From Cohnella panacarvi Gsoil 349 (GTDB lineage: Bacteria > Bacillota > Bacilli > Paenibacillales > Paenibacillaceae), in assembly GCF_000515335.1 (NCBI RefSeq), contig NZ_KI911563.1:1628056-1692055 (forward strand): a stretch of 64,000 nucleotides of DNA, read 5' to 3'. Shown here one piece after another: positions 30,558 through 47,822 of this stretch. Numbering within the stretch: the first letter of the stretch is position 1; every line of letters begins with the position of its first letter. The notes below the pieces were generated by a model. The model saw only the letters and a list, made by a program, of their open reading frames with translations. It was not told the DNA's origin and did no database searches. The position numbers were made by a program, and so were the translations under genes.

Positions 30558-30920
30558 CTTATTTCGCCGAAACCCGCGCCACCGACGCATTTAGAGTCAC
30601 CACGTGTGCTTATTTCGCCGAAACCCGCGCCACCGACGCATTTAGAGTCACCACGTGTGCTTATTTCGCCGAAACCCGCGCCACCGACGCATTTAGAGTC
30701 ACCACGTGTGCTTATTTCGCCGAAACCCGCGCCACCGACGCATTTAGAGTCACCACGTGTGTTTATTTCGCCGAAACCCGCGCCACCGACGCATTTAGAG
30801 TCACCACGTGTGCTTATTTCGATGAAACCCGCGCCACCGACGCATTTAGAGTCACCACGTGTGCTTATTTCGCCGAAACCCGCGCCACCGACGCATTTAG
30901 AGTCACCACGTGTGCTTATT
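30558..30920 (+). repeat. 51-bp tandem repeat array A1 (7 full copies)
   Basis: Seven contiguous 51-bp units start at 30558, 30609, 30660, 30711, 30762, 30813 and 30864, with a partial CTTATT at 30915. Copies are nearly identical; unit 5 begins with T and unit 6 has GATGAAACC for GCCGAAACC. Each contains TCAC-CACGTGTG followed by CT and TATTTCGCC. It lies in the convergent gap between yfkK and a DUF4380 gene. The unit is 17 codons long, so both strands stay open, but no start site supports translation. Confidence 0.95.
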
Positions 30921-30930
30921 CTCCTAAAAA

Positions 30931-30962
30931 AATCCTTCAACCCGATTGCGGTTGAAGGATTT
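30931..30962. terminator. Bidirectional terminator after array A1
   Basis: AATCCTTCAACC pairs with GGTTGAAGGATT around an 8-nt loop, flanked by AAAAAAA on the left and TTTTG on the right. It can stop transcription from the DUF4380 gene (stop codon at 30967) and readthrough from array A1. Confidence 0.85.
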
Positions 30963-30966
30963 TTGT

Positions 30967-31896
30967 TTACTGCACATAGGGCTGAAGCTTCGCTACCGCC
31001 TCTTGCTCGGTGCCTCGCTTCAGGTCAAGCCCTTTCACGACTCGCCATGTCTCGACGTGCGTAAGGGTTTCCCCGGATTCCACTTCCTGCAGCTCGCCGA
31101 GCGTCTCCAGCTCCAGCATGAGGTTGTTCGTGTACAGCTCGAACGAAACGCCGAAATCAGGATACGTTCCGCCGGGAACTGACGTATAACGCTTAATGAA
31201 CGTGTCGCCGTGGTTGCTGTAAGCCGCCCAACCGGCTTCGTTGTCGCTGCCGAACTTGTAAGGCGTCGGCCCGTCTCCTTGGTTGACGACGACCTCGGAT
31301 TCCGTGAACACGATCCGCGAATCGTTCAAGCGCGCGTAAGGCCACAGAATGAAGCGGCGATTCGGCAGCAAGCCCGTATTCGCGCCGCTCATCGGCACGA
31401 TCGCCCGGCCGCCGGCGCCCATGACGGACAATGCCCATACCGCGAAGTTGATCGGCCAAGCTCCTTTGTTCGTCACGCGGTGCGTAACCGTAATGCCGTC
31501 GCCGGAAGCATCCAATTGGATTTCGATTTCCTTGGCGACTTGGTTCCACCGTTCTTCGGAAGGACGAAGAACGATGCCGCGCTCGCCGACTTGCGCCCAT
31601 TCGATCGGATCGTTGTCCGGGTAAGTCGTGCGCGGCAGTCGTTCAGGGCTCGTCCACAGGCGGTGTCCGCCGTAAATGTGCCACTTGTCCCCGCCGACCG
31701 GCTCGAACGCGTCGCCGCCGTTCGTCAGCGCGTCGTCTTTATCTTCCAAGAACAGATTGGTCCCGCCCTGGGAGGACAGGTGAATAATGCGCGGCCCGAA
31801 ATCGAGCGTTGCCAGCAGTTCCACGCGATCGCTCGCCAACGATACGCAGCGGCCCCATCTTTCATGTTGAATGACTTTAATCGTTGCTACCGACAT
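30967..31896 (-). CDS. DUF4380 / galactose-mutarotase-fold protein
   Basis: 309 residues, beta-sandwich pattern of the galactose-mutarotase-like superfamily: LATLDFGPRIIHLSSQGGTNLF, DKWHIYGGHRLWTSPE, VTHRVTNKGAWPINFAVWAL and a C-terminal THVETWRVV. It resembles DUF4380. It is the last gene after galK-galE-galT and would supply the otherwise missing aldose 1-epimerase step of the Leloir pathway, but this is inference: the usual GalM catalytic His/Glu are not certain by eye. The ATG follows GGAG at 9 nt. Confidence 0.72.
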   Translation of the reverse strand: MSVATIKVIQHERWGRCVSLASDRVELLATLDFGPRIIHLSSQGGTNLFLEDKDDALTNGGDAFEPVGGDKWHIYGGHRLWTSPERLPRTTYPDNDPIEWAQVGERGIVLRPSEERWNQVAKEIEIQLDASGDGITVTHRVTNKGAWPINFAVWALSVMGAGGRAIVPMSGANTGLLPNRRFILWPYARLNDSRIVFTESEVVVNQGDGPTPYKFGSDNEAGWAAYSNHGDTFIKRYTSVPGGTYPDFGVSFELYTNNLMLELETLGELQEVESGETLTHVETWRVVKGLDLKRGTEQEAVAKLQPYVQ

Positions 31897-31937
31897 ATTC
31901 AAGCGCTCCTCTATCGTCTAGATTCCAACTTATTGTA

Positions 31938-33524
31938 TCAGATAATCGAAGTTTTCGTTAAGAAGCGTTTGAACGCTTCGCGCCCGGCGGCATCCGTCTT
32001 GTATACGCCGGCGTCCCGCAACACCGCCGCGAACTTGTCCCCGACCGCGGCTTCCAGCAGACGCCGCGCGTCCTCGGCTTCGTTCGCCGTTCCGTGCCTG
32101 GCAACGAGCTCGCCGATCCAATCCGCGTGCAAGTTCAGCGGGTGAGACGGCGATCGCAGCATGGAGGCGTCGTACGGCGCGACGCCCGTAAGCAAGTCGG
32201 CAATCTGCGCAAGCTCGCCTTTCAGCCGTCCCGGCAATACCGCGAGTCCCATCACTTCGATCAACCCGATATTTTCGCGTTTAATATGATGCAGTTCTTG
32301 ATGAGGGTGGAAAATGCCAGCCGGGTGCTCTTCGCTGGTACGATTGTTGCGCAGCACCAGGTCAAGCTCGTACGAGCCGTCTTCCCGTCGCCGCGCGATC
32401 GGCGTGATCGTGTTGTGCGGCACTCGTTCGCTTCCGTTAGCGCTGAACGCCAATACATCCGCATCCGGGTCGCTGTATGCTCTCCAGCTCGCCAGAATGT
32501 ACGTCGCCGCGCGCAGCAACGCATGGCGGTCCGCAGCGCGCATACGCAGCACGGACATCGGCCACTCCACCCTTCCGATCGATACGGAAGGCTCGGCCGC
32601 GCAGGCATTCCAATCGAGCGCGTCGGCCTTCTCCATCGGGAAGACGTGACGTCCGGCTTGGAAATGATCGTGATTCAGAATCGATCCGCCGACAATCGGC
32701 AAATCCGCGTTGGAACCGATGAAGTAGTGCGGGAATTGGTCGACGAAATCGAGCAGCCTGACGAACGTCGCCGGAGAGATGACCATCGGCGTATGCTCGC
32801 CTTTGAGCAGGATGCTATGCTCGTTATAATAAGCGTAAGGCGAGTATTGGAAAAACCACGGCTCGCCATGAAGCGTTAACGGCAGGATGCGCAAGTTTTG
32901 CCTGGCCGGATGGTCGAGACGTCCGGCATAGCCGACGTTATCCCGACAAAGCAGGCATGGCGGATAGTTCGCCTGAGGCATCGACTTGAGAAGCGCGATT
33001 TCCTTCGGATCCTTCTCCGGCTTCGCGAGGTTGATCGTGATTTCCAGCTCGCCGAACGGCGTCGCGTGTCTCCAATACCCGTTCTTCCGGTTGCGGTCCT
33101 CGCGAATATAGTTCACGACGATGTTCATTTTGTAGAACCAGTCCGTCGCGCCCGTAACGCCGCTGCTCTCGACCTTCTCCCGAAAAATCCTGTTCGTCTC
33201 CGAAGGCCGAGGCATGAGCAATCCCATCAGACGGGAATCGAACAAATCGCGATACGCCGCAAGATGATCTTCGATAAGCCCTTGAGCCGCAGCGATATCC
33301 AAGAGCGGTTCTAGCAGCGGCACGGGGCTGTCCGGAAGCGCGTCTAAGTCCGCCGAGTATCCCGTAACCGGCTCCGTCAGTCCGAATAAGTCCAATAGCG
33401 AGTTGCGAGAGAACTCTAAATCCATAGAATCGATAAGTCCGTTCTTCAAAGCGAAAGCGACAAGCCTCTCGATGTGCATACCGGTCGTTGCCCGATCCGG
33501 TACGGTTGAATTCGTCCGCGACAT
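31938..33524 (-). CDS. galT: UDP-glucose--hexose-1-phosphate uridylyltransferase (class II GalT)
   Basis: 528 residues, the long Gram-positive GalT type. Family landmarks are PQANYPPCLLCRDNVGYAGRL near the middle, SNADLPIVGGSILNHDHFQAGRH containing the HDHFQ active-site histidines, and PHNTITPIARR. It transfers UMP from UDP-glucose to galactose-1-phosphate. GGAGGAACGAC precedes the ATG at 33524; the open frame extends 49 codons into the spacer without a ribosome site. Third gene of galK-galE-galT. Confidence 0.93.
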   Translation of the reverse strand: MSRTNSTVPDRATTGMHIERLVAFALKNGLIDSMDLEFSRNSLLDLFGLTEPVTGYSADLDALPDSPVPLLEPLLDIAAAQGLIEDHLAAYRDLFDSRLMGLLMPRPSETNRIFREKVESSGVTGATDWFYKMNIVVNYIREDRNRKNGYWRHATPFGELEITINLAKPEKDPKEIALLKSMPQANYPPCLLCRDNVGYAGRLDHPARQNLRILPLTLHGEPWFFQYSPYAYYNEHSILLKGEHTPMVISPATFVRLLDFVDQFPHYFIGSNADLPIVGGSILNHDHFQAGRHVFPMEKADALDWNACAAEPSVSIGRVEWPMSVLRMRAADRHALLRAATYILASWRAYSDPDADVLAFSANGSERVPHNTITPIARRREDGSYELDLVLRNNRTSEEHPAGIFHPHQELHHIKRENIGLIEVMGLAVLPGRLKGELAQIADLLTGVAPYDASMLRSPSHPLNLHADWIGELVARHGTANEAEDARRLLEAAVGDKFAAVLRDAGVYKTDAAGREAFKRFLTKTSII

Positions 33525-33576
33525 GTCGTTCCTCCTCGATAATTGTAATCTTCGTCGGGCTCGAACAAACTCGCCA

Positions 33577-34566
33577 TCAGTCTTGCCCGTAACCTTCCGG
33601 ATGGTTGACGTGCCATTGCCAAGCGCTGGCGATAATATCTTCCAGGCGATCGCGTCTTGGCGTCCAACCAAGCTCCCGTATCGCTCTAGCAGGCGAAGCG
33701 ACTAACGCAGCCGGGTCTCCCGCGCGGCGAGGCTCGTATTTCGCCTGAATTTCTCGTCCCGTCACTTGGCGAGCGACGTCGATCACTTGCTTCACCGTGA
33801 AGCCTTGGCCGCTGCCGAGATTGAAGATACCGCTCTCCCCGCCGTTGCACAGCCGCTCCAACGCGAGCAAATGCGCGTCCGCCAGATCGCTTACGTGAAC
33901 GTAATCGCGCACGCAGGTGCCGTCGACCGTCGGATAGTCGTCTCCGAACACGGAGATGTGCGAGCGCTGCCCTAGCGCGGCTTGCAGGACGAGCGGGACG
34001 AGATGCGTCTCCGGGCTATGGTCTTCGCCGATCCTACCGCTCTCGTGCGCGCCGGCGGCGTTGAAATAACGAAGCGATACGTATTTGATGCCGTGCGCGA
34101 CGTCGAACCAACGAATCATGCGCTCCATCGAGAGCTTCGTCTCGCCGTACGTGTTCGTCGGCAAGGTCCGGTCGAACTCGTCGATCGGAGTGCGCTCCGG
34201 CTCTCCGTAAGCAGCCGCCGTGGAGGAGAACACGATTCTCTTCACGTCGGACTTGTGCATTTGCTCCAGCAAGCATAAGGTGCCGTATACGTTATTGCGA
34301 TAGTATTTGGCCGGATCCTGCATGCTCTCGCCGACGAGGGAGCTCGCCGCGAAATGAATAACGCCGTCGATCTCGTTCTCCGCGAACACGTTCGATAGAA
34401 ACTCCGCATCCCGTATATCGCCGACGTACAATTTTCCGCCGAGCACCGCTTTCCGATGTCCTTGCGCCAAGTTATCCACGACGACAACCTGCTCGCCCTT
34501 TTCCAATAATGCCGCAACCGCGTGCGACCCGATGTATCCTGCGCCGCCTGTAACGAGAACAGCCAT
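33577..34566 (-). CDS. galE: UDP-glucose 4-epimerase
   Basis: 329 residues, extended SDR: the NAD motif GGAGYIGSH at the N-terminus, the Ser of FSSTAAAYG, the YxxxK pair in YGETK, and RYFNAAGA. It interconverts UDP-glucose and UDP-galactose. A poly-G/GGGGGGG ribosome site precedes the ATG; 3 bp separate it from galK. Confidence 0.96.
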   Translation of the reverse strand: MAVLVTGGAGYIGSHAVAALLEKGEQVVVVDNLAQGHRKAVLGGKLYVGDIRDAEFLSNVFAENEIDGVIHFAASSLVGESMQDPAKYYRNNVYGTLCLLEQMHKSDVKRIVFSSTAAAYGEPERTPIDEFDRTLPTNTYGETKLSMERMIRWFDVAHGIKYVSLRYFNAAGAHESGRIGEDHSPETHLVPLVLQAALGQRSHISVFGDDYPTVDGTCVRDYVHVSDLADAHLLALERLCNGGESGIFNLGSGQGFTVKQVIDVARQVTGREIQAKYEPRRAGDPAALVASPARAIRELGWTPRRDRLEDIIASAWQWHVNHPEGYGQD

Positions 34567-34569
34567 CGT

Positions 34570-35751
34570 TTACGCCCCCCCTTTGATCTCGCGTACCCCG
34601 TCGCCGATATCGCAAACGTAAAAGTCCGCGCGCAAGCCGGTTTTCGCTTCATATTCACGGCCAACGTCCGCTTTGAATCGCTCGACCGAATCGCGATGCA
34701 CGAGCGACACCGTGCAGCCGCCGAATCCCGCTCCCGTCATGCGCGCGCCGAGCACGCCCGGCACTCTGCGCGCCGCGTCTACCATCGCGTCGAGCTCCTT
34801 GCCCGTCACTTCATAGAGATCGCGCAGCGAGTCATGGGAAGCGTTCATCAGCTTGCCGAAAGCCGCCAGATCGTCTTGGCCGAGCACGGCCATCGACTGC
34901 TTCACGCGGTCGATCTCTTCGATGACGTGCCGCGCGCGTCGTCGTACCGTATCGTTCTCGATCAGGCGTTGATGCGACTCGAACTGCGCCGGAGTCAACT
35001 GTCCGAGCAATGCGAGATCAGGGACCGCCCCCTTCAGATCGGCAACCGCCCGGTCGCACTCGGAACGACGCTCGTTGTACTTCGAATCTACTAATCCGCG
35101 GCGTTTGTTCGTGTTGCTTATTACGATTTTATAGTCGCCGGAGCGAAAAGGAACGAGCGTGTAGTCGAGCGTATCGCAATCAAGCAGAATCGCGTGATCC
35201 TTCCGTCCGTTCGCGACCGCGAACTGGTCCATGATGCCGCATTTGACGCCGATATATTCGTTCTCCGCATGCTGCGACCAGCGTGCGATCGCGATTTTAT
35301 CCGTTGGCTGGCCTTCCAGCGTCAATAACGCGTAAGCCGTAACGACCTCGATCGATGCCGAGGAAGACAAGCCGGAGCCGTTCGGAATTTCACCGTGGTA
35401 GAGAAAGCTGTACCCTTGGCTCAGGCCGACGCCTTGCCGCGCGAGTTCCCATACGATTCCTTTCGGGTAGTTCGCCCAGTCGTGCTCATCCGCGTAAGCG
35501 ATGTCGTCCGCGGATATCTCGAGCGAGTAAGGAAAATTCGTCGAAGCGAAGCTGAGCCTGCCGTCTTGGCGAGGCGCGATCAGCAGCGTCGTTCCGAACG
35601 TAAGCGCCGCCGGGAAAACCGCGCCGCCGTTGTAGTCCGTGTGCTCGCCGATCAGATTCACGCGTCCGGGAGCTTGAAATACGGAAATGTCGGAGGCGTT
35701 GCCGCCAAACCGTTCTACGAACCGCTGTTTCAAAGAAGTCACATCTGCCAT
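34570..35751 (-). CDS. galK: Galactokinase
   Basis: 393 residues, GHMP kinase: galactose-binding signature PGRVNLIGEHTDYNGG, ATP-binding GSGLSSSASIEV, catalytic Asp in KCGIMDQFA, C-terminal GARMTGAGFGGC. It phosphorylates alpha-D-galactose. First gene of the gal operon; AAGGAGAG precedes the ATG, with a consensus promoter 39 bp upstream. Confidence 0.96.
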   Translation of the reverse strand: MADVTSLKQRFVERFGGNASDISVFQAPGRVNLIGEHTDYNGGAVFPAALTFGTTLLIAPRQDGRLSFASTNFPYSLEISADDIAYADEHDWANYPKGIVWELARQGVGLSQGYSFLYHGEIPNGSGLSSSASIEVVTAYALLTLEGQPTDKIAIARWSQHAENEYIGVKCGIMDQFAVANGRKDHAILLDCDTLDYTLVPFRSGDYKIVISNTNKRRGLVDSKYNERRSECDRAVADLKGAVPDLALLGQLTPAQFESHQRLIENDTVRRRARHVIEEIDRVKQSMAVLGQDDLAAFGKLMNASHDSLRDLYEVTGKELDAMVDAARRVPGVLGARMTGAGFGGCTVSLVHRDSVERFKADVGREYEAKTGLRADFYVCDIGDGVREIKGGA

Positions 35752-35789
35752 CGGAACTTTCTCTCCTTGGTACGTCTATTTTTGTAATC

Positions 35790-35818
35790 AGTATAGCGAA
35801 TCCGCTTGCTTACCCCAA
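35790..35818 (-). promoter_or_regulatory. gal operon promoter
   Basis: On the minus strand, -35 TTGGGG (35813-35818) and -10 TATACT (35790-35795) are spaced by 17 nt, directly upstream of galK in the intergenic region shared with the divergent AraC regulator. Confidence 0.5.
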
Positions 35819-35884
35819 TGGCTTGAAATGCTTTATACATGGAGAAATGTGACTTTCAGAGGAACTCCTGCCGACTGTTCGTGC

Positions 35885-35890: not shown

Positions 35891-35925
35891 GAGGGAAAGT
35901 TTATGAGGTCATAAGGAGTATAACC

Positions 35926-36798
35926 ATGACTGCATCCGACGCTTATACGTATCGCGTGGCGTCCAATCCGGTCACCCTGCAGCCGCGCGGATTGACGGTG
36001 CTGTTCTCCGGGGAAAGCCAGACGAAGCCGGGTCACCGCATCGGTCCTAAAGTCGTCGATTACTATTTGTTGCACCATGTTTTGTCCGGAAGAGGGCGGT
36101 TTCATAGCGGCGAATACGACGGGGAGCTGACGGCCGGCTCAAGCTTCCTCATCCATCCGCATCAATTGTTCGACTACGTCTCCGACGAGGCCGAGCCGTG
36201 GCGCTATCGTTGGGTGGCTTTCATCGGCGCGGATGCGGGCGAGCTGGTTGCATCGGCGGGACTCGGGCTCCTCTCGCCGGTCGTCGACACCGGCGACAGC
36301 CCGGCGCCGGCGGATCGCTGCCGCGCGATTTTCGATTGTTTTCGCATGCGTGCCGGGGCCGCTTCGGTGGAAGCGACCGGCCACCTGCACTTGCTGTTCG
36401 CGGACCTGGCGACCGGCGCTTCCGATCGCGCGGCTTCGCCGCAACTTCGTCCGAATTCGCACAACGAAGAGCTTGTCCAGCTCGTGATCGGCTATCTGAC
36501 GACGCAGTACGCCGAGCCGATCACCATCGAAGCGATGGCGGAAACGTTAGGCTACAATCGCGCCTACTTATCGCGTCTGTTCAAGCAGGTCGTCGGGTTG
36601 TCGCCGGTCACCTTCCTGACCAAGCTGCGAATCGACCATGGAAGACGCCTGCTTCGGGAGCGCCCGGAGCTGACCGTCGAGCAAATCGCGTCCTCCGTCG
36701 GTATCCAAGATCCGCTCTACTTCTCGAAGCAATTCCGGCGCTGGCACGGTCAATCGCCGTCGATGTACCGGTCCGCGGTCGGACAGGGGGCCAAATAA
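35926..36798 (+). CDS. AraC family transcriptional regulator, probably of the gal operon
   Basis: 290 residues: an N-terminal cupin-like sensor domain (about 1-165, HHVLSGRGRFHSGEYDGELTAG...FLIHPHQ) and a C-terminal double HTH (about 185-285) with ITIEAMAETLGYNRAYLSRLFKQ and TVEQIASSVGIQDPLYFSKQFRRWHGQSP. Divergent placement 174 bp from galK suggests it controls galKET in response to a sugar. AAGGAGT precedes the ATG. No secretion signal; cytoplasmic. A strong terminator follows at 36801. Confidence 0.87.
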   Translation: MTASDAYTYRVASNPVTLQPRGLTVLFSGESQTKPGHRIGPKVVDYYLLHHVLSGRGRFHSGEYDGELTAGSSFLIHPHQLFDYVSDEAEPWRYRWVAFIGADAGELVASAGLGLLSPVVDTGDSPAPADRCRAIFDCFRMRAGAASVEATGHLHLLFADLATGASDRAASPQLRPNSHNEELVQLVIGYLTTQYAEPITIEAMAETLGYNRAYLSRLFKQVVGLSPVTFLTKLRIDHGRRLLRERPELTVEQIASSVGIQDPLYFSKQFRRWHGQSPSMYRSAVGQGAK

Positions 36799-36800
36799 AG

Positions 36801-36833
36801 GCGGACATGCCTCTATTCGATGCGCATGTCCGC
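36801..36833 (+). terminator. Terminator of the AraC regulator gene
   Basis: GCGGACATGC (36801-36810) pairs perfectly with GCATGTCCGC (36824-36833), followed by GTTTCCTCC. It lies between the regulator stop and array A2. Confidence 0.75.
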
Positions 36834-36854
36834 GTTTCCTCCATTTTAGGGCGA

Positions 36855-37460
36855 TTTTGCTTCTATTTGGCATTCGCGTTTTCGCCCCGCTCCGTATTTC
36901 CGCCAAATAAGATCACGCCGTGTCTCTATTTCGTCCTCTGCACCGGATTTCCGCAAATTAAGATCACGCCGTGTCTCTATTTCGCCCTCTGCACCGGTTT
37001 CCCGCCAAATAAGATCACGCCGTGTCTCTATTTCGCCAACTACACCGGTTTCCCGCTAATTAAGATCACGCCGTGTCTCTATTTCGCCCTCTGCACCGGT
37101 TCCCCGCCAAATAAGATCACGCCATGTCTCTATTTCGCCATCTGCACCGGTTCCCCGCCAAATAAGATCACGCCGTGTCTCTATTTCGCCCTCTGCACCG
37201 GTTTCCCGCTAATTAAGATCACGCCGTGTCTCTATTTCGCCCTCTGCACCGGTTCCCCGCCAAATAAGATCACGCCGTGTCTCTATTTCGTCCTCTGCAC
37301 CGGATTTCCGCAAATTAAGATCACGCCGTGTCTCTATTTCGCCCTCTGCACCGGTTTCCCGCTAATTAAGATCACGTCGTGTCTCTATTTCGCCCTCTGC
37401 ACCGGTTTCCCGCAAATTAAGATCACACAGTGACTCTATTTCGCCCTCTGCACCGGTTCT
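36855..37460 (+). repeat. 51-bp tandem repeat array A2 (11 copies plus degenerate start)
   Basis: Units beginning GATCACG recur at 36911, 36962, 37013, 37064, 37115, 37166, 37217, 37268, 37319, 37370 and 37421; 36855-36910 holds a decayed unit. Each has TCAC-GCCGTGTC, then TC and TATTTCGCC, then a segment ending CCAAATAA, CTAATTAA or CAAATTAA. These endings alternate in a non-random order. The last unit is divergent (CACACAGTGAC). The array stops 12 nt before the asparaginase stop codon. Confidence 0.95.
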
Positions 37461-37471
37461 AACGCGCCAGC

Positions 37472-38494
37472 TCACGGAAGCGCCGCTTCCCACCGACCTG
37501 CCGATTCTCCCGCATCGTTCTGGAACTCCGCCGGGAACGCGGCCGCGAGGCGTTGCTTCGTCTCCTCGGCCAAGTTGCCGAACCGCTCCAACAGCGCCAT
37601 TGCGATATAAGGCCACGCGATTTCCGTGCCGTTCGCCACCGTGAAGGCGACGCCAAGCCGCTCGCGACGGAGGCCGAACGCGAATACGCCGTGCGCGCCG
37701 CTCTTGGCGACGACGTTCGGGTCGGCCAGCAGGATGCTGGCTAAACGACGGTCGCCTTCGACGAGCAGCGGGTGAGCGTTCATCGCCTGCGCCATCGCGG
37801 CCGCTGCCGCCGTCGAAGCGGCGTCGACGCCTGCTGTCGCGGCCAGTTCGGGACTCGCGAGCCTGCCGTACCCGAGCGCCAGCCTCCGCAGCGGCATCGC
37901 CGCCACCGGGAAGCCGCAGCCGTCGCGGCCGACCGTCACCTGCGAAGCGTCTTCGCCGGTCCACCGCGCCACCGCGCCGAGCACTTCCCGCTGGGCGGGA
38001 TGATCCGGATGAATGTATCCCTCCAGCGGCCATCCCTTCAGCTTGCTATACGCCAGCACGCCAAGATGTTTGCCCGCGCACGTATGAAACAGCTTGCGAG
38101 GCCGACCTCCCCCCGCAACGAAGGCATCGCGGTTTCGACTGCCTGCCGGCAACGTAGCCCCAACCGCAAGCGCGTCTTCCGGCACCCCGGTCAGCGCCAG
38201 CATCTCCTCCAGCACGACCATCTGCTCGGAACTTCCCCGATGAGAAGCCCCCATCAGAGCAAGGTGCCGCGACTCCAATTCGTACGCTTCCGCGAGTCCA
38301 TCCTCCAATGACGCGATCGCCTGCATCGGCTTCGCCGTCGAACGCACGTAGGTCGGCGCCCCGGTATCCCCGACCGAATACAGCTCGCGGCCGTCCGTCG
38401 CCGCAACGACGCTGATCCGCCCCCGATGCGCGTTCTCCGGGAGTGCTCCGCGAATCATCACGGCTAATGTCTGATCTTGAGGTATATGGTTCAT
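37472..38494 (-). CDS. L-asparaginase (Asparaginase_II family)
   Basis: 340 residues with the AnsA/asparaginase_II layout: VRSTAKPMQA with the Ser/Thr-x-Lys motif, MGASHRGS, HTCAGKHLGVLA, GRDGCGFPV and KSGAHGVFAFGL. It should hydrolyse asparagine to aspartate in the cytoplasm. The C-terminal half is Ala/Arg-rich with high GC. AGGAG lies 8 nt before the ATG. No terminator follows other than array A2. Confidence 0.87.
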   Translation of the reverse strand: MNHIPQDQTLAVMIRGALPENAHRGRISVVAATDGRELYSVGDTGAPTYVRSTAKPMQAIASLEDGLAEAYELESRHLALMGASHRGSSEQMVVLEEMLALTGVPEDALAVGATLPAGSRNRDAFVAGGGRPRKLFHTCAGKHLGVLAYSKLKGWPLEGYIHPDHPAQREVLGAVARWTGEDASQVTVGRDGCGFPVAAMPLRRLALGYGRLASPELAATAGVDAASTAAAAAMAQAMNAHPLLVEGDRRLASILLADPNVVAKSGAHGVFAFGLRRERLGVAFTVANGTEIAWPYIAMALLERFGNLAEETKQRLAAAFPAEFQNDAGESAGRWEAALP

Positions 38495-41656: not shown

Positions 41657-42910
41657 ATGAGCTTGCATTTCGGAACGTTATATTGGCCCGAGACTTGCGC
41701 GAAGCCCGCCTCCTATGCCGCGCTGAACGAAGACGTCAAGACGCGCGTCGCCATCGTCGGCGGAGGCATGTCCGGCGTTGCATGCGGATACGAGCTCGCA
41801 CGGTCCGGCATGGAAGCCGTCCTCATCGAGCAAGGGCGGATCGCCGGCGGCAGCTCGGCGGCGAATAGCGGAATCGTGCAATTTATGAGCGATAGAATGC
41901 TAGGCGATTTCATAGGCACGCTCGGCGAGCGGGATGCCGTGACTTTATATCGGGCCTGCCTTCAAGCCGTCGAACGCTTGCTCGCGATCTCCGAGCGTTT
42001 GCCTCGCGGCGCGCAAGCCCGAAGACGCTGCAGCCTGTACTATGCTTCGACCCCGGAGGAAGCCGCTCCGCTCCGCCAAGAATACGAGCTTCTTCGCCGG
42101 CATGGGTTCGGCGCGGACTGGTGGGACGCGAGCATGATTGCCGAGCGCTTCCCCTTTCGCAAAGACGCGGCGATCCTTACGCACGGAGACGCCGAGTTCA
42201 ACCCTTACTTATTCGTGCTCGCCCTCGCCGAAGAAGCCGTCAAGCTCGGATTATCCGTCTATGAGCATACGGCGTTGAAATCCGTCCATCATGCGCCCGC
42301 CGGCAGCGGCGCGAGATTCGTCGTCGAGACGAGCGGCGGCACGATCGAAGCCGACCACATCGTCTATGCGGTCGGTTATACGCCCGAACAAGCCGGAGGC
42401 CGCTGGATACGCGCCAGAACGTGCCGCACGTACGCGATCGTCACGGACCCGCTGGCAAGCCTGACCGGCTGGCATGAACGCTGCTTGCTCTGGGAGACGG
42501 CCCGCCCTTACCTATACGCCCGGACGACGCCGGATAACCGCCTCGTCGTCGGCGGACTGGACGAGAATCTCAGGTTGCCGGTGCTCACCGCCAAGGAATT
42601 GCGCGCGCATTCGCTTCGATTGCTGTCCGAAATGAACAAGCTGTTCCCGCAATGGAAGCCGGAAATCCGGTATGAATGGTGCGGCTCCTTCTGCGAATCG
42701 GCGGACGGGTTGCCTTGGATCGGCGAAGATCCCGACCGCCCGGGCCAGCACTACTTGCTCGGCTACGGCGGGAACGGCGCGGTATACAGCATGCTTGGCG
42801 CGAATGTCATTCGGGATAATCTGACGGGCAACGATCATCCGGCTTCAACCATCGTCCGGCCCGATCGCCGCGTCGCCATTCCGGGCGCCGGCGCCGCTTC
42901 GTCCGTCTAA
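41657..42910 (+). CDS. FAD-dependent oxidoreductase (DAO family)
   Basis: 417 residues: VAIVGGGMSGVACGYELAR dinucleotide-binding motif near residue 31, SAANSGIVQFMSD, and a C-terminal GYGGNGAVYSML typical of glycine/D-amino-acid oxidase-like enzymes. The N-terminus (SLHFGTLYWPET) and the absence of a CxxxC or Rieske tail leave the substrate open. GGAGGAACC precedes the ATG. It is divergent from the PMT gene and convergent with the stress-protein gene. Confidence 0.85.
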   Translation: MSLHFGTLYWPETCAKPASYAALNEDVKTRVAIVGGGMSGVACGYELARSGMEAVLIEQGRIAGGSSAANSGIVQFMSDRMLGDFIGTLGERDAVTLYRACLQAVERLLAISERLPRGAQARRRCSLYYASTPEEAAPLRQEYELLRRHGFGADWWDASMIAERFPFRKDAAILTHGDAEFNPYLFVLALAEEAVKLGLSVYEHTALKSVHHAPAGSGARFVVETSGGTIEADHIVYAVGYTPEQAGGRWIRARTCRTYAIVTDPLASLTGWHERCLLWETARPYLYARTTPDNRLVVGGLDENLRLPVLTAKELRAHSLRLLSEMNKLFPQWKPEIRYEWCGSFCESADGLPWIGEDPDRPGQHYLLGYGGNGAVYSMLGANVIRDNLTGNDHPASTIVRPDRRVAIPGAGAASSV

Positions 42911-42915
42911 GGAAA

Positions 42916-42952
42916 GAGCTGCCTCCGCCTTAAGTCAGGGTTGAAGCAGCTC
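42916..42952. terminator. Terminator-like hairpin between oxidoreductase and stress-protein genes
   Basis: GAGCTGC (42916-42922) pairs with GCAGCTC (42946-42952). The minus strand continues TTTCCTTAG and the plus strand CTCCTTATTT, so either direction may use it. Confidence 0.5.
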
Positions 42953-42960
42953 CTCCTTAT

Positions 42961-43443
42961 TTATACGCCTTCCCAGCCAACGATGTCCGTTGCCCCCGAT
43001 CGCCTAAGCAAGGCTTCGGCGTTTATGCCGACCTCGGTATCGGTAACGACGACGTACCTTCCGTTCTCGATCGCTTTCGCGCAGCAGCCGGCGGCTTCGC
43101 CAGGTATGCCGATGTCGCGCAGCAGCTCCTCGCTAGACGGCTCGTCGCGGTGCGGGTTGCCGACGAGCGCTGCTTCGAGTCCGGTCGAGCCGTACTGCGA
43201 CAGCCCGCCCGGCTGAAGTCCCGGGGTAATCAGACGCGCATCGCCCCCGTTGTCCAAGCGGGCCAACTGCAGCTCGTAGAGCTCCTCGATCCGAACATTG
43301 CCCTCCGACGTAAGCCTGGGCGCTCCTTCTCGATTGTTCACGACGACGCGGATATCGTCTTGCTCCGCACCCGCCTCGCGAAGCAAGCGAATGGCATCCA
43401 GCACGCCTTGTTCGTTATCGAATATCGCGATGTTCTCCATCAT
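42961..43443 (-). CDS. General stress protein 17M-like domain protein (YflT family)
   Basis: 160 residues beginning MMENIAIFDNEQGVLDAIRLLREAGAEQDDIRVVVNNRE, characteristic of the YflT/GSP17M domain (a small ferredoxin-like fold), with a central variable linker and a C-terminal AAGCCAKAIENGRYVVVTD. Members are stress-induced in Bacillus. GGAGGTGCGAC lies before the ATG at 43443. The ribosome site doubles as the end of a short upstream frame. Confidence 0.75.
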   Translation of the reverse strand: MMENIAIFDNEQGVLDAIRLLREAGAEQDDIRVVVNNREGAPRLTSEGNVRIEELYELQLARLDNGGDARLITPGLQPGGLSQYGSTGLEAALVGNPHRDEPSSEELLRDIGIPGEAAGCCAKAIENGRYVVVTDTEVGINAEALLRRSGATDIVGWEGV

Positions 43444-43675
43444 GTCGCACCTCCGTCCGAATTCTGTTGTTCCTGTTGGGACATGCGTCCTTGGTATTCC
43501 CGTTGTCGCGGGTTTGAATCCGAAACCCGGCGCCGGCATGCTTTGTCCTTCCCGGAACGAAGCATAAACCATTTTGACCCCAAGTATAAATCTGTTAGCT
43601 GAACGACGACGTTGGAAAATAAGGTTGCGAGACGCTTTTCCGGGGAACACTTGAAATAACGGAGGTTGATCCCAC

Positions 43676-44719
43676 ATGAAAGCACTGTTACTCGCCGGCG
43701 GACTCGGTACCAGGCTTCGCCCCCTGACGGAACATCTTCCGAAGCCGATGGCGTTAGTCGGCAACCGCCCCTGGCTGGAGCATCTGCTGCTGAATTATAG
43801 GGAACAAGGCGTGCAACGATTCGTCATCGCCGTCAAACATTACCGCGAGCTCATCGAAGGCTACCTCGGCGACGGTTCTAAATACGGAGTCGGCATCGAA
43901 TACGCCGTCGAGAAAGACTTGCTCGGCACGGCGGGCGCTATCAAGAACGCGGAACATCTGCTGGGCGATCGGTTTATCGTCGTCAACGCGGATATTATTC
44001 ACTCAGTCGATCTCGCTTCCGCTTTGAAATTCCATGAACGGCACGGAGGGGCGGCGACGATCTGCCTGACGGAGGTCGACGATCCGTCGCATTACGGCGT
44101 CGTCGAGCAGCTGGACAGCGGGGAAATCGTCCGTTTCGTCGAGAAGCCGAAGCGGGACGAGGCGCCTTCGAATCTGATCAACGCGGGCATATACATTCTG
44201 GAACGAAGGGCGCTCGGCCTTATTCCGTACGGCAAGCCTGCGTCTATCGAGAGAGAAACGTTCCCGCTGCTGATCGCCAACGGAAGCGGCGTGTACGGCC
44301 ATCCGATCGGCGGGTATTGGATGGACATGGGCACGACGGAACGTTACCGCCAGCTTCATTGGGATTTGCTCGATCGCCGTTTTCCGGTCAGCATCGACGG
44401 ACAGGAGATGGACGACAAAGGGATATGGCTCGGCAACGACGTTCGGATCGGTCAAGGCGTCTTGATCGTGCCGCCCGTCATGATCGGCGACGACGTGACG
44501 ATCGGAGACCGGTCCATCATCGGTCCGTACGCCGTTATCGGCAACGGAAGCCGAATCGGCGGGCAGGTCCGCTTATCCAACTCCATCCTGTGGGATCGCT
44601 GCAGAGTTCGCGCGGGCGCGCAGCTTAACAATTGTATTTTCGGTTCCGGGATGCAAGCCGGTCCCCATATTCTTCACGAAGCCGTATGTAATCGTAACTT
44701 GGAGGTTAATCGTCAATGA
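43676..44719 (+). CDS. Sugar-phosphate nucleotidyltransferase (mannose-1-P guanylyltransferase-like)
   Basis: 347 residues. NTP-transferase signature LAGGLGTRLRPLTEHLPKPM, then NADIIHSVDL and INAGIYILE; the C-terminal ~90 residues are left-handed beta-helix hexapeptide repeats (GVLIVPPVMIGDDVTIGDRSIIGPYAVIG). It should make an NDP-sugar, GDP-mannose or UDP/ADP-glucose being the usual candidates. ACGGAGG lies upstream of the ATG. It overlaps the following GT4 gene by 4 bp. Confidence 0.87.
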   Translation: MKALLLAGGLGTRLRPLTEHLPKPMALVGNRPWLEHLLLNYREQGVQRFVIAVKHYRELIEGYLGDGSKYGVGIEYAVEKDLLGTAGAIKNAEHLLGDRFIVVNADIIHSVDLASALKFHERHGGAATICLTEVDDPSHYGVVEQLDSGEIVRFVEKPKRDEAPSNLINAGIYILERRALGLIPYGKPASIERETFPLLIANGSGVYGHPIGGYWMDMGTTERYRQLHWDLLDRRFPVSIDGQEMDDKGIWLGNDVRIGQGVLIVPPVMIGDDVTIGDRSIIGPYAVIGNGSRIGGQVRLSNSILWDRCRVRAGAQLNNCIFGSGMQAGPHILHEAVCNRNLEVNRQ

Positions 44720-45897
44720 ACGCCAAATATCCGCAAATCGCCTACGTCAGCACTTACGTTCCGAAAAAATGCGGTTTAGCTACTTACACGCACCATCTGC
44801 GGGAAGCCGTCTCCAAAGCCAAAGAAGGCTCGCTTCCCGATCCCGTCGTCGCGATGTGCAACGCGGATGAGTTGCCCGACTATCGGGAGCCCTGGATGCA
44901 TCCGCTCGTCAAGGTGAACCTAAGCGACTATCGCGACATCGCCGATCTCATTAACGACAGCGCCGCCGAAGTCGTGTCGCTGCAGCATGAATTCGGTATT
45001 TTCGGCGGTGAAGCCGGCCATTACGCGATCGAATTGATTCGCAGGCTTAAGAAGCCCGTCGTCACGACTTTCCACACCGTATTCGAACAGCCCGCCGCTC
45101 CTTACTCGGACGTGCAGAAGCAGATCGCGCATTGGAGCAATCATCTGATCGTGATGAACCGCAAAGGCATCGGCTATTTGCAGGACGGATTCGAGATCGC
45201 TCCCGCTAAAATATCGTTCATTCCCCACGGCACGCCGGTTCTAGGCAGCGTCGATCGAGCGCGGATACGCCGGGATAACGGTTGGGATCAGCGCAAAGTC
45301 ATGTTCACTTTCGGCCTTCTTGGGCGCAGCAAAGGCATCGAGCTCATTCTGCAGGCCATGGAAAGCGCGGTCCGCGAAGTTCCCGAGCTGCTGTACGTCG
45401 TCGCCGGGCAGACCCATCCCGAAGTCCGCAAGCACGAAGGCGAAGCCTACCGGGACGAGCTGTTAACGCTCGTCAATCGCCTCGGACTTAACCGGCACGT
45501 GCAATGGATCGACCGCTACGTGCCGGAGGACGAGCTTGCCTCGATGATTGCGGCTTCCGATCTATACGTGACGCCTTATCCCGGCCTGTCTCAGATTACG
45601 AGCGGCACGCTCGCGTATGCGGCGGGTTTAGGCCGTCCGATCTTGTCTACGCCTTATGTATATGCGAGAGATTTGGTTCAAGGACATGAGGAGATGCTGC
45701 TTCCGTTCGGGGACTCGGATCAGTGGGGACAGAAATTGATCGAGCTTTTCACGACGCCGGGAATGCTTGCGGAATGGGAGCGCGTCATGTCGGAAATCGG
45801 ACAAGGGATGCATTGGCCGCATGTGGGGGCGCAGCATTTGCGGTTGTTCCGGCAGCTCATCGATCGGCAATCGAGAGGAATCGCGGATGTCGTCTAA
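44716..45897 (+). CDS. GT4-family glycosyltransferase
   Basis: 393 residues, GT-B fold: N-terminal IAYVSTYVPKKCGLATYTHHL and C-terminal nucleotide-sugar region FTFGLLGRSKGIELILQAM with PEDELASMIAASDLYVTPY and QITSGTLAYAAGLGRPILST (E/T-x7-E-like motif). It overlaps the nucleotidyltransferase and the next gene, so all three are probably translated together; the pair likely makes a mannose- or glucose-containing oligosaccharide. Acceptor unknown. Confidence 0.87.
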   Translation: MNAKYPQIAYVSTYVPKKCGLATYTHHLREAVSKAKEGSLPDPVVAMCNADELPDYREPWMHPLVKVNLSDYRDIADLINDSAAEVVSLQHEFGIFGGEAGHYAIELIRRLKKPVVTTFHTVFEQPAAPYSDVQKQIAHWSNHLIVMNRKGIGYLQDGFEIAPAKISFIPHGTPVLGSVDRARIRRDNGWDQRKVMFTFGLLGRSKGIELILQAMESAVREVPELLYVVAGQTHPEVRKHEGEAYRDELLTLVNRLGLNRHVQWIDRYVPEDELASMIAASDLYVTPYPGLSQITSGTLAYAAGLGRPILSTPYVYARDLVQGHEEMLLPFGDSDQWGQKLIELFTTPGMLAEWERVMSEIGQGMHWPHVGAQHLRLFRQLIDRQSRGIADVV

Positions 45898-47050
45898 GCT
45901 TCGCTCGCTGCCGCGCCCGGATCAACGCCCTTCGTTCGTCCATTTGCGCCGACTGACGGACGATACCGGCTTGCTCGAGCATGCGCTAGGGCGAATCCCG
46001 CGCCGCAAGGAGGGCTATACCGCCGACGACAACGCCCGCGCGTTATGGACGGCGACGGAATGGCTCACGGGCGACGACAGCCGGATTCTCCCGAGCGAGC
46101 GCTCCGAGCTTGAACGTCTTGCCGATATATACATTGCCTACCTGCTATGGAGCCAGAACGACAACGGCTGGATTCATAACAATATCGCTTACGATCGGAC
46201 GCCCGAACGGGAAGAACGCTCCCACGATTGCCAAGGCCGTGCGATCTGGGCATGCGCCGACGCTTGGGTGCGGCTGTCTCAATCTTCGCGCGAAACCGCC
46301 AAGGCGATCGTCGCGCGCGCGATGCCGACGCTCGGCAGCATCGATTCGCACAGAGGGCAAGCGTTCGCGATGGCCGCCTGCGCGCATCTGCTGGATGCGT
46401 CGGATCGCGGCGTGATCGCCCTTCCGGGCGACATTCGCTTAGAGCTGCTGTACCACATGGATCGATACGAAGGCGTGCTCGCACGCGCATTCAGCCACTT
46501 TAACGACGGGGAATGGAGATGGTTCGAGCCCGCCATGACTTACGGCAACGGCGTTCTGCCCTGGGCCATGCTTCGTACGTACCGGTATACCCGTCGCTCA
46601 GGAACGCTCGCGGCGGGGCTCGAAAGCCTGGCTTTTCTGCTGGAAACGATGCTGGCCGAGGAAGGTTGGCTTCGCCCGATCGGCAACGAAAGCTGGTGCA
46701 CGCGAAATCGTTCGAGCCGATGGGACCAGCAGCCGTTGGAGGTGTTCAAGCTCGCGCTGGCGCTGGCTGAAGCCGCGACGGTTCTGCAGCCGGCGGAACG
46801 GGACGATCGAGGCGTGCTCGTCGGCAACTTCGCGGCGGGCGGTCTTCCGGACAGCATCGTCGATCACCGCGCGTTCCGGGACCTTTGCCGGGATTGGTTC
46901 TACGGCCGCAACGACCTCCACGCCCCGCTCGTCGACGCATCCGACGGGAGCTGCTGCGACGGGCTGACGCGCTACGGGCCGAATATGAACTGCGGCGCGG
47001 AATCGACGATATCCTATTTAATGACGATTGCGATCTGCAGAGATCGGTAA
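45887..47050 (+). CDS. Alpha/alpha-toroid glycosidase-like protein
   Basis: 387 residues. Helical-repeat (alpha/alpha)6 toroid pattern: KEGYTADDNARALWTATEWLTG, DIYIAYLLWSQNDNGWIHNN, SHDCQGRAIWACADAWVRLSQ, SHRGQAFAMAACAHLL, YGNGVLPWAMLRTYRYTRR, NESWCTRNRSSRWDQQPLEV. Such proteins often follow GT4 enzymes, but specificity and even hydrolytic versus structural role are open; the Trp/Asp-rich motifs suggest sugar binding. The ATG lies inside the end of the GT4 gene, after GAGAGG. Confidence 0.68.
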   Translation: MSSKLRSLPRPDQRPSFVHLRRLTDDTGLLEHALGRIPRRKEGYTADDNARALWTATEWLTGDDSRILPSERSELERLADIYIAYLLWSQNDNGWIHNNIAYDRTPEREERSHDCQGRAIWACADAWVRLSQSSRETAKAIVARAMPTLGSIDSHRGQAFAMAACAHLLDASDRGVIALPGDIRLELLYHMDRYEGVLARAFSHFNDGEWRWFEPAMTYGNGVLPWAMLRTYRYTRRSGTLAAGLESLAFLLETMLAEEGWLRPIGNESWCTRNRSSRWDQQPLEVFKLALALAEAATVLQPAERDDRGVLVGNFAAGGLPDSIVDHRAFRDLCRDWFYGRNDLHAPLVDASDGSCCDGLTRYGPNMNCGAESTISYLMTIAICRDR

Positions 47051-47054
47051 AATG

Positions 47055-47099
47055 AAGGCGTCCCGCCGTCATCATCGAGATGACTGCAGGACGCCTTTT
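47055..47099 (+). terminator. Terminator of the nucleotidyltransferase-GT4-toroid operon
   Basis: AAGGCGTCC (47055-47063) pairs with GGACGCCTT (47089-47097), with inner TCATC/GATGA stem, followed by TTA. It separates the operon from array A3. Confidence 0.82.
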
Positions 47100-47125
47100 A
47101 GATGCTCCAGATTCGTCGCATTAGC

Positions 47126-47822
47126 TTAGCGTTGCCACGCAACGTTACTTCGCCGCTCTCCCGCCACACCTTCGCATTAGCGTTGCCACGCAACGTTACT
47201 TCGCCGCTCTCCCGCCACACCTTCGCATTAGCGTTGCCACGCAACGTTGCTTCGCCGCTCTCCCGTCGCACCTTCGCATTAGCGTTGCCACGCAACGTTG
47301 CTTCGCCGCTCTCCCGTCGCACCTTCGCATTAGCGTTGCCACGCAACGTTACTTCGCCGCTCTCCCGTCGCACCTTCGCATTAGCGTTGCCACGCAACGT
47401 TACTTCGCCGCTCTCCCGCCACACCCTCGCATTAGCGTTGCCACGCAACGTTACTTCGCCGCTCTCCCGTCGCACCTTCGCATTAGCGTTGCCACGCAAC
47501 GTTACTGCGGCGCTCTTCCGCCACACCTTCGCATTAGCGTTGCCACGCAACGTTACTTCGCCGCTCTCCCGTCACACCTTCGCATTAGCGTTGCCACGCA
47601 ACGTTACTTCGCCGCTCTCCCGTCGCACCTTCGCATTAGCGTTGCCACGCAACGTTGCTTCGCCGCTCTCCCGTCGCACCTTCGCATTAGCGTTGCCACG
47701 CAACGTTGCTTCGCCGCTCTCCCGTCGCACCTTCGCATTAGCGTTGCCACGCAACGTTGCTTCGCCGCTCTCCCGTCACACCTTCGCATTAGCGTTGCCA
47801 CGCAACGTTACTTCGCCGCTCT
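47126..47822 (+). repeat. 51-bp tandem repeat array A3 (14 copies)
   Basis: The motif GTTGCC recurs at exactly 51-bp steps from 47131 to 47794. Each unit has CGTTG-CCAC-GCAACG, then TACTTCGCC (TGCTTCGCC in some), GCTCTCCCG and CGCATTAG. Point variants (Y at the CGC/CAC position, GCGGCGCTCTTCC in one unit) show ongoing divergence. It lies between the GT4 operon terminator and the RluA-family stop, only 4 nt away from the latter. On both strands a frame is open through the array; no start site supports coding. Confidence 0.95.

What the first reader, a model, noticed from the sequence alone, without database searches (positions are those of the whole stretch)
30558..47822. Three tandem arrays with the same 51-bp period and a shared core
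Arrays A1 (30558-30920, 7 units), A2 (36855-37460, 11 units) and A3 (47126-47822, 14 units) differ in sequence but all have a period of exactly 51 bp. Aligned by eye, each unit has a dyad-type element, then TATTTCGCC (A1, A2) or TACTTCGCC (A3), at the same 14-nt offset: A1 TCACCACGTGTGCT, A2 TCACGCCGTGTCTC, A3 TTGCCACGCAACGT. A1 and A3 also share CGCATTtAG. They look like diverged members of one repeat family that expands in place. I know of no described element of this kind.
Basis: partly seen in the sequence, partly recalled or inferred. Interest (0 to 1): 0.85.

Follow-up and report, generated by a model that had tools for sequence, protein, structure and literature searches.

The report
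Five-turn DNA satellites at gene ends
This bacterium (a Cohnella relative) carries many short tandem-repeat blocks whose repeat sequence differs from block to block but whose repeat length stays at 50-52 bases, and the A/T-rich spots in them are spaced about one DNA-helix turn apart, which offers a physical reason for a length rule that was described before without an explanation.

Summary
In detail: A1, A2 and A3 are real 51-bp arrays with one core; a core profile trained without each array and its near kin still scores it above 500 of 500 shuffles.

In 852 kb of this genome, 19 of 25 arrays (period 25 or more) have units of 50-51 bp or a multiple. New here: over 50 arrays of separate sequence clusters, A/T steps are phased at 10.2 bp (z 12 against intergenic DNA). 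Published Bacillus families repeat this at 10.4 bp; 35 arrays of other periods do not. Where a hairpin is strong, its centre has one rotational phase (24 of 24). Own arrays favour convergent gaps (19 of 39 against 86 of 719 gaps) and recur at two tested orthologous sites in other species, mostly with unrelated sequence.

Best reading: DNA bending or wrapping elements five helical turns long; the partner protein is unknown. A3 itself shows little phasing.

The parts
30558..30920 (+). Array A1, 7.1 units of 51 bp; dyad CAC-CAC-GTG, then TATTTCGCC
   Evidence: TRF; WW 10.2-bp power 7.31, rank 1 of 13 harmonics, phase at dyad 10 deg
36855..37460 (+). Array A2, about 11-12 units of 51 bp; dyad CAC-GCC-GTG, then TATTTCGCC; first unit degenerate
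   Evidence: TRF (36900-37458); WW power 5.04, rank 1 of 13, phase at dyad -4 deg
47126..47824 (+). Array A3, 13.7 units of 51 bp; hairpin TAGCGTTG-CCACG-CAACGTTA, then CTTCGCC
   Evidence: TRF; hairpin; WW power only 0.32, rank 11 of 13, phase at dyad 4 deg
30329..30550 (+). DUF1128 gene whose stop codon lies 8 bp before A1
   Evidence: PF06569, 105.7 bits for 30227-30550; an array lies on the 3' side in 11 of 30 orthologous loci including this one
30926..30964. Long perfect stem-loop between A1 and the next gene, with an A run before and a T run after it, so terminator-like on both strands (by eye; not listed by the scan). It follows A1 on the + strand, so A1 may be read into the DUF1128 transcript
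   Evidence: sequence
30967..31902 (-). Mutarotase-like gene convergent with the DUF1128 gene
   Evidence: NF052227, 300 bits, below its cut-off of 550
35926..36798 (+). AraC-family regulator gene, 3' end before A2
   Evidence: PF12833, PF00165
36801..36832 (.). Stem-loop GCGGACATGC...GCATGTCCGC between the AraC-family gene and A2 (by eye; no clear T run)
   Evidence: sequence
37472..38494 (-). Asparaginase II gene convergent with the AraC-family gene
   Evidence: PF06089, 300 bits
45887..47050 (+). Gene without a Pfam or NCBIfam match at E<=0.001, 3' end before A3
47056..47099 (.). Stem-loop AGGCGTCC...GGACGCCTTTT between that gene and A3 (by eye)
   Evidence: sequence
47826..49061 (-). RluA/RluD-family pseudouridine synthase gene, convergent; 3' end 2 bp from A3
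   Evidence: TIGR00005, 230 bits, over cut-off; an array lies on the 3' side in 7 of 30 orthologous loci including this one

Best explanation
The arrays are DNA-level structural elements. Each unit is five helical turns long (50-52 bp), with A/T steps turned to one face of the helix and, in about half of the sequence clusters, a hairpin-forming dyad at a fixed rotational position. A run of units is therefore one long stretch of DNA that prefers to bend in one direction, or to wrap on a protein surface. The arrays lie mostly just beyond the 3' ends of genes and often between convergent genes, where transcription piles up positive supercoils. Shown: the unit length, the phasing, the dyad lock, the position and the recurrence at two orthologous sites. 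Inferred: that selection acts on this rotational geometry and not on sequence, which would let sequences turn over while length and position stay. Inferred and least certain: that a protein wraps the arrays and that the effect is topological. DNA gyrase, which prefers phased G/C DNA and the palindrome arrays called BIME-2 in E. coli, is the first candidate; a nucleoid protein is the second. The units multiply and homogenise by unequal exchange or slippage.
For: Period: 19 of 25 arrays (period 25 or more) in 852 kb of this genome are 50-51 bp or multiples of it (two, of 203 and 258 bp, counted as 4 and 5 units by eye). Phasing: in 50 cluster representatives (of 102 arrays) the WW power at 51/5 = 10.2 bp is 4.72, z 16.7 against shuffles and 12.3 against intergenic 51-mers; next best harmonic z 2.9; in 25 representatives without type-I core words z 7.3 and 5.0. 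In 26 of 50 without a strong hairpin z 10.8. In 14 arrays of the own genome's stretches taken by coordinate, z 7.4. Linear, non-circular autocorrelation peaks near 10, 20-21 and 30. Replication: 23 published Bacillus families, WW at 10.4 bp z 8.1. Negative control: 35 non-overlapping arrays of other periods z -1.0. Dyad lock: 24 of 24 strong-hairpin representatives within 60 degrees, resultant 0.95, 12 of 12 also without core words; 294 intergenic hairpins resultant 0.11. Position: 19 of 39 own arrays in convergent gaps against 86 of 719 gaps (P 2e-8; without the core-directed ones 8 of 18, P 6e-4); in tandem gaps 14 of 15 nearer the 3' end. Recurrence: 10 of 29 other species have an array 3' of DUF1128 and 6 of 29 3' of the RluD-like gene, 1 and 1 of 30 on the 5' side; identity to the own array 0.39-0.55 (shuffled pairs mean 0.41, 99th percentile 0.49).
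Against: A3 has almost no WW signal at 10.2 bp (power 0.32, rank 11 of 13), and 10.2 bp is the strongest harmonic in only 24 of 50 representatives (12.8% of intergenic 51-mers). A strong hairpin is not universal: 20 of 50 at P<=0.05. In the published Bacillus families the dyad lock has the opposite sign (14 of 15 near 180 degrees), which speaks against one conserved partner with one geometry. The gyrase motif has a period of 10.75 bp (PMC6379681, passages), not 10.2. Arrays are not scarcer between divergent genes than gaps in general (5 of 39 against 83 of 719); what they lack is tandem gaps. A1 probably lies inside the DUF1128 transcript. The other-period control is made mostly of arrays with periods that are multiples of three (31 of 35), so it does not speak for non-coding arrays. 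Ordinary intergenic DNA of this genome has a weak peak at the same 10.2 bp (power 1.80 against 4.57). No curvature was measured or modelled and no protein is known to bind.
Confidence: 0.42

Rival explanations
1. Neutral or selfish satellites: a slippage or repair process with a built-in ruler of five helical turns makes and enlarges the arrays, and they survive where they do least harm, beyond gene ends. The phasing is a by-product of that machinery (for instance looping of curved DNA), not a function.
For: Within-array homogeneity, degenerate edges and higher-order blocks; patchy presence at orthologous sites, 10 of 29 and 6 of 29 species; in tandem gaps 14 of 15 lie nearer the upstream gene's end than the next gene's start.
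Against: A ruler alone fixes the length but does not obviously phase A/T steps inside a new unit or lock the dyad to them. The rate at the DUF1128 site (10 of 29) is above that of convergent gaps in the own genome (8 of 86, P 2e-4).
Confidence: 0.28
2. Gyrase landing pads (a special case of the best explanation): the arrays work like BIME-2 of E. coli and attract DNA gyrase to gene ends.
For: Gyrase sites have symmetric, phased G/C arms, gather downstream of transcribed operons and occur in BIME-2 palindrome arrays (PMC6379681, abstract and passages; PMC12393610, passages). The arrays here have phased A/T, dyads and 3'-end positions.
Against: 10.75 bp in the E. coli motif against 10.2 here; opposite dyad phase in Bacillus; that paper finds that gyrase's downstream enrichment seems not hard-wired in sequence. 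No gyrase score could be computed.
Confidence: 0.15
3. RNA-level function: the arrays are transcribed from one or both sides and act as chains of hairpins (3'-end stabilisers, sponges or small RNAs).
For: In 30 core units 79.3% of stem cells are paired against 70.7 +- 1.6 in shuffles, and 37 cells carry changes on both sides against 21.9 +- 3.4 (0 of 500 shuffles each); slid structures pair 31-47%. A1 lies between the DUF1128 stop and a terminator-like stem-loop, so it is probably transcribed. 52-nt repeats of B. coagulans appear in RNA-seq (PMC8625621, one section).
Against: Only 20 of 50 representatives have a stem at P<=0.05 while phasing is about as strong without one (z 10.8 against 12.9); pairs with a change on both sides (5) and further pair types (12) do not exceed the shuffles; A2 and A3 come after a stem-loop that follows the upstream gene. 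RNA gives no reason for a 10.2-bp rhythm.
Confidence: 0.15
4. Coding repeats: 51 = 17 codons, so A2 and A3 could encode peptide repeats.
For: Long open frames run through A2 (36198-37433) and A3 (47102-47860).
Against: Members with the same core have period 50, which shifts the frame at each unit; own arrays lie in gaps between called genes; 0 of 50 representatives lie inside a clearly longer called gene.
Confidence: 0.02

Closest known systems
Constant-size 52-nt tandem repeats of Firmicutes (Subirana & Messeguer 2021, PMC8161180; their 2020 J Bacteriol paper is not held)
   Same: Non-coding, constant unit (51-53 nt), many unrelated families in one genome, short words present with their reverse in the same unit, abundant in Paenibacillus.
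   Different: Here units are 50-52, mostly 51. Helical phasing, dyad lock, place beyond gene ends and recurrence at orthologous sites are not in the text read; [quoted passage not shown]
REP / BIME-2 palindrome arrays
   Same: Short extragenic palindromes, mostly beyond gene 3' ends and between unidirectional and convergent genes (PMC3733652, abstract and passages).
   Different: No GTAG tag in the aligned cores, no Y1 transposase found in the genome, fixed unit length, one stem sequence per array.
E. coli DNA gyrase motif (PMC6379681)
   Same: Symmetric, helically phased G/C variation; gyrase gathers downstream of transcription units.
   Different: A single 130-bp site with period 10.75 bp; here tandem units with period 10.2 bp.
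CRISPR arrays
   Same: Dyad-bearing repeat plus spacer at regular spacing.
   Different: The 'spacer' is nearly the same in all units of an array. cas genes were not searched.
Nucleosome positioning sequences
   Same: A/T steps phased at about 10.2 bp around a dyad (general knowledge, recalled).
   Different: No histone-fold gene of PF00808 found in this genome.

Membership tests
Constant-size 52-nt tandem repeats (Subirana & Messeguer) | Unit length constant at 51-53 nt over unrelated sequences | tested here: met
   19 of 25 arrays in 852 kb are 50-51 bp or multiples; 102 arrays of period 50-52 form 50 sequence clusters. The range is shifted down by one base
Constant-size 52-nt tandem repeats (Subirana & Messeguer) | Not protein-coding | tested here: met
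   Period-50 members with the same core; own arrays lie in gaps between called genes; 0 of 50 representatives flagged inside a longer gene by my own gene caller, though one (L180) looks coding by eye
Constant-size 52-nt tandem repeats (Subirana & Messeguer) | Characteristic short words and their reverse in the same repeat | tested here: met
   CGAAATA (either strand) in 11 of 50 representatives, maximum 5 in 20 shuffled sets; both orientations in one unit seen by eye in several arrays
Constant-size 52-nt tandem repeats (Subirana & Messeguer) | Firmicutes, notably Paenibacillus | tested here: met
   28 of 37 stretches with the tandem core pattern are Cohnella (20) or Paenibacillus (8); 9 are other organisms
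REP / RAYT | GTAG tag at the stem foot | tested here: not met
   No GTAG at columns 7-10 in 30 of 30 chosen units
REP / RAYT | RAYT (Y1_Tnp) gene in the genome | tested here: not met
   0 matches of PF01797 at E<=0.001; control rings in 5 of 14 genomes
CRISPR | Different spacer in each unit | tested here: not met
   Spacers near-identical inside arrays
CRISPR | Adjacent cas genes | not tested
   -
Gyrase-binding BIME-like element | Bound and cut by gyrase in vivo | not testable with these tools
   -
Gyrase-binding BIME-like element | Helically phased base composition at the motif's period of 10.75 bp | tested here: inconclusive
   Strong phasing, but best period 10.2 bp
Known RNA families | Match to an Rfam model over the arrays | tested here: not met
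   3 gathering-level matches in 8 sources (134 kb), none over an array

The most novel reading that the evidence does not exclude
The 50-52 nt satellites of Paenibacillaceae and Bacillaceae follow a chromatin-like DNA code: dyad-centred units five helical turns long that wrap an unidentified protein at the ends of transcription units. Selection keeps rotational geometry, length and place while the sequence is free to drift. Cohnella and Bacillus use the two opposite dyad phases.
Probability: 0.27. Interest if true: 0.87.

Novelty: new variant of a known kind. Interest (0 to 1): 0.68.

Why it matters
A published puzzle, why many Firmicutes keep tandem repeats of one length and almost any sequence, gets a simple physical hypothesis that can be tested at the bench: the unit is five helical turns with A/T steps on one face. 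It predicts which proteins to look for (those that bend or wrap DNA), where they act (mostly beyond gene ends), and that adding half a turn per unit should abolish the effect. If true it would be a sequence-independent, geometry-dependent element in bacterial chromosomes.

Tried and rejected
Replichore polarity: the first genome-wide lists seemed to show all arrays on + in one half and on - in the other. The list is cut (a minus-strand site at 2088190, seen, is missing from it), and the stretches taken by coordinate hold opposite cases. With a core profile, 24 of 40 arrays have a clear strand (mean score over 15, difference 3 or more, sorted by eye); 19 of these 24 fit the replichore and five do not. 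Ascertainment was partly by that core. I treat it as suggestive only and do not build on it.

IS200/IS605 or RAYT mobilisation: no Y1_Tnp match. Histone-fold partner PF00808: no match. A dif-site pattern gave only two weak hits, so the terminus was placed by GC skew, between about 0.36 and 0.46 Mb. Rfam: nothing on the arrays. My first hairpin test (18 of 40 at P<=0.05) was spoiled for several arrays by indels in the consensus and was replaced. The first other-period control (69 rows, z 0.9) held overlapping TRF rows, some of them half-units of 51-bp arrays; it was replaced by 35 non-overlapping arrays. G.U against A.C strand bias in stems was looked at by eye only and showed nothing clear. 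WW and SS being in antiphase is nearly automatic and is not used as evidence.

Limits: genes were called with my own codon-score script. The cluster cut (62% ungapped, single linkage) was chosen, not tuned. The 102 arrays come from stretches taken by coordinate and from array-directed loci of this genus, Paenibacillus and two other families of the order; eleven loci (the nine from other organisms, and L131 and L145, which TRF shows without arrays) and the overlapping loci L001-L030, L038-L067 and L081 were left out. Of the own genome's 40 arrays one (L155) lay at a locus edge and was dropped from the context count; two arrays of L076 share one gap and count twice. Of the 40 stretches taken by coordinate one is 7.9 kb and the second twenty are not exactly even. 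The genome search scored at most 150 candidates per genome with the RNA model. Loci were returned for 30 of 37 genomes in each and only those were examined. The Bacillus dyad test allowed loops of 3-11 and the Cohnella test 3-8; with 3-11 the Cohnella result is unchanged (24 of 24).

I dropped an earlier remark that they avoid promoter gaps.
Full report
What is there. The window holds three period-51 tandem arrays at the stated places, far above chance. They share a core: an A/T-rich foot, a dyad, and TTTCGCC or a near variant, which aligns without gaps in 30 units of nine arrays (chosen from 69 pieces). A core profile that never saw a given array or its nearest relative still scores a 102-bp piece of A1, A2 and A3 above 500 of 500 shuffles each. 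Over whole units only A1 and A2 resemble each other more than shuffles do.

How far it goes. A scan of the own genome for the spaced core and a covariance model led to more arrays, with units of 50 as well as 51 bp. To escape the bias of searching with the core I took 40 stretches by coordinate (788 kb) and added the window. Of 25 arrays with period 25 or more, 17 have a unit of 50 or 51 bp and two more (203 and 258 bp) are four- and five-unit blocks of it, judged by eye. The other six have periods 21, 27, 30, 39, 40 and 48. Without the window the count is 16 of 22 arrays in 788 kb, about 20 per Mb. Some of these arrays do not have the TATTTCGCC core at all: one group has ATTGTCGC-loop-GCGACAAT, another AATAATTG...TAGTTGTT. 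In smaller samples of relatives 3 of 7 (G015), 5 of 12 (G018), 4 of 9 (G013) and 1 of 6 (G025, another family) arrays have a unit of 50-52. The core model matches 19 of 24 other genomes of the genus and 2 of 15 genomes of other families at E<=0.01. Named hits place the genus as Cohnella: 20 of 37 stretches with the tandem core are Cohnella, 8 Paenibacillus, 9 other, and G015 has the contig length of Cohnella cholangitidis.

The class is known. Subirana and Messeguer describe tandem repeats of constant size, 52 (51-53) nt, with variable sequence, in about 30% of the Bacillus species they studied and particularly abundant in Paenibacillus, with short words that recur with their reverse in a unit. 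[quoted passage not shown] An earlier survey by the same authors calls non-coding satellite families rare in prokaryotes (PMC6749651, three of five parts read). Their 2020 paper is not held, so I cannot say what it contains.

A reason for the length. 51 bp is five turns of 10.2 bp. I tested whether the inside of the unit follows the helix. From 102 arrays of period 50-52 I kept one per sequence cluster, 50 in all (shuffled pairs reach 0.49 identity at the 99th percentile, the clusters were cut at 0.62). The circular spectrum of WW steps has one outstanding peak, the fifth harmonic (10.2 bp): power 4.72, z 16.7 against shuffles and 12.3 against 1,816 intergenic 51-mers of the own genome; the second best harmonic has z 2.9. 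It remains in 25 representatives without the type-I core words (z 7.3 and 5.0), in 26 without a strong hairpin (z 10.8), and in the 14 arrays from own-genome stretches taken by coordinate (z 7.4). The linear autocorrelation inside one unit, which knows nothing of the repeat, peaks near 10, 20-21 and 30. Thirty-five non-overlapping arrays of other periods from the same loci show nothing at 10.2 bp (z -1.0); 31 of them have periods that are multiples of three, so they are mostly not the ideal non-coding control. As an independent set I took the consensus repeats printed in Table 1 of PMC8161180, 23 after dropping two near-duplicates: WW at 52/5 = 10.4 bp has z 8.1, the next best harmonic 2.2.

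The dyad. 20 of 50 representatives have a stem at P<=0.05 against dinucleotide shuffles (2.5 expected; intergenic control 13 of 150). Where the hairpin is strong (24 of 50), its centre has the same rotational phase: 24 of 24 within 60 degrees, resultant 0.95; A/T fraction is 0.96 and 1.00 at 9 bp on either side and low at 5 and 15 bp; 294 intergenic 51-mers with equally strong hairpins show resultant 0.11, with 129 within 60 degrees. In the Bacillus families the lock is also tight but opposite in sign (14 of 15 near 180 degrees, resultant 0.85). A symmetric element favours one of these two values, so the result means that each lineage uses one of them. That is unexpected and speaks against a single conserved partner with fixed geometry.

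Where they sit. With my own gene calls, 19 of 39 placeable arrays of the own genome lie between convergent genes, against 86 of 719 gaps (P 2e-8); without the arrays that were found by the core, 8 of 18 (P 6e-4). In tandem gaps, which hold 15 of 39 arrays against 550 of 719 gaps, 14 of 15 arrays are nearer to the 3' end of the upstream gene than to the next gene's start. Divergent gaps hold 5 of 39, the same share as in general (83 of 719). All three window arrays lie between convergent genes. A2 and A3 follow a stem-loop after the upstream gene; A1 starts 8 bp after the DUF1128 stop and comes before a terminator-like stem-loop, so it is probably transcribed (by eye).

Turnover in place. DUF1128 (beside A1) has a match in 37 of 37 genomes of the genus. 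The RluD-like gene (beside A3) also has one in 37 of 37, but in G021 only a distant paralogue. In the 30 loci returned for each, an array of 50-52 bp or a multiple lies within 400 bp 3' of DUF1128 in 11 (10 of 29 without our own) and of the RluD-like gene in 7 (6 of 29); on the 5' side in 1 and 1. Four further loci have only arrays of other periods there. Identity of these arrays to ours is 0.39-0.55; two of 16 exceed the 99th percentile of shuffled pairs. Among the other species, 3 of 45 pairs at the DUF1128 site and 2 of 15 at the RluD-like site reach 0.6, so a few species share an array and most do not. Place and unit length persist or recur while the sequence does not. For DUF1128 the rate exceeds that of convergent gaps in the own genome (8 of 86; P 2e-4).

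Mechanism. Constant length, phased A/T, fixed dyad phase and free sequence point to DNA shape as what matters. I infer that the arrays bend or wrap, and that their place links them to transcription-driven positive supercoiling. Gyrase is a candidate because its motif has symmetric phased G/C arms, it gathers downstream of transcribed operons, and it cuts BIME-2 palindrome arrays (PMC6379681, abstract and passages). Against gyrase stand its 10.75 bp period and the opposite dyad phase in Bacillus. The main rival is a neutral satellite made by a process with a five-turn ruler. An RNA role is less likely because phasing does not depend on hairpins, but it is not excluded. Coding is excluded for the family by its period-50 members.

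Against my reading. A3 itself has almost no WW signal at 10.2 bp. The fifth harmonic is the strongest in 24 of 50 representatives, not all. The covariation count is mixed: paired cells and double changes exceed all shuffles, but the number of pairs with a double change and of pair types does not. One representative (L180) looks coding by eye although my gene caller flags none of the 50. Nothing about binding, curvature or function has been measured.

Novelty statement. That helical phasing and the dyad lock of these repeats are not in print rests on reading PMC8161180 and on two searches in an open-access library; the 2020 paper by the same authors could hold part of it.

Noticed in passing
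window 24996-25083 (-): c-di-GMP-I riboswitch, 81.6 bits.
   Followed up: no
L037 5580-5834 (+) and L036 1024-1107 (+): T-box leader beside array C3 and a ZMP/ZTP riboswitch near the C2/D1 arrays.
   Followed up: no
L156, L157, L161, L164, L036, L261: A second palindrome group, ATTGTCGC-loop-GCGACAAT or close to it, with the same 51-bp unit but no type-I core; it occurs in the own genome and, in a variant, at the DUF1128 site of another species.
   Followed up: partly
published Bacillus families against Cohnella arrays: Dyad phase is near 180 degrees in Bacillus (14 of 15) and near 0 in Cohnella (24 of 24), both tightly locked; unexplained.
   Followed up: partly
L163 13179-13347: A 40-bp tandem array, the one array in the own sample whose period is neither 50-51 (or a multiple) nor a multiple of three.
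   Followed up: no
L132 1406-2422: Candidatus Epulonipiscium viviparus has a 20-copy 51-bp array containing CTATTTCGCC next to 33-bp arrays; possibly coding.
   Followed up: no
window 36198-37433 (+) and 47102-47860 (+): Long open frames run through A2 and A3 because 51 is a multiple of three; gene finders may call false genes there.
   Followed up: partly
G000:C1, about 0.4-2.89 Mb and the rest: Among 24 arrays with a clear core strand, 19 put TTTCGCC on the lagging (C-rich) strand; suggestive only.
   Followed up: partly
L149, L151, L265, L281 and others: Higher-order repeats of several units (152-258 bp), as in eukaryotic satellites, point to block duplication inside arrays.
   Followed up: no
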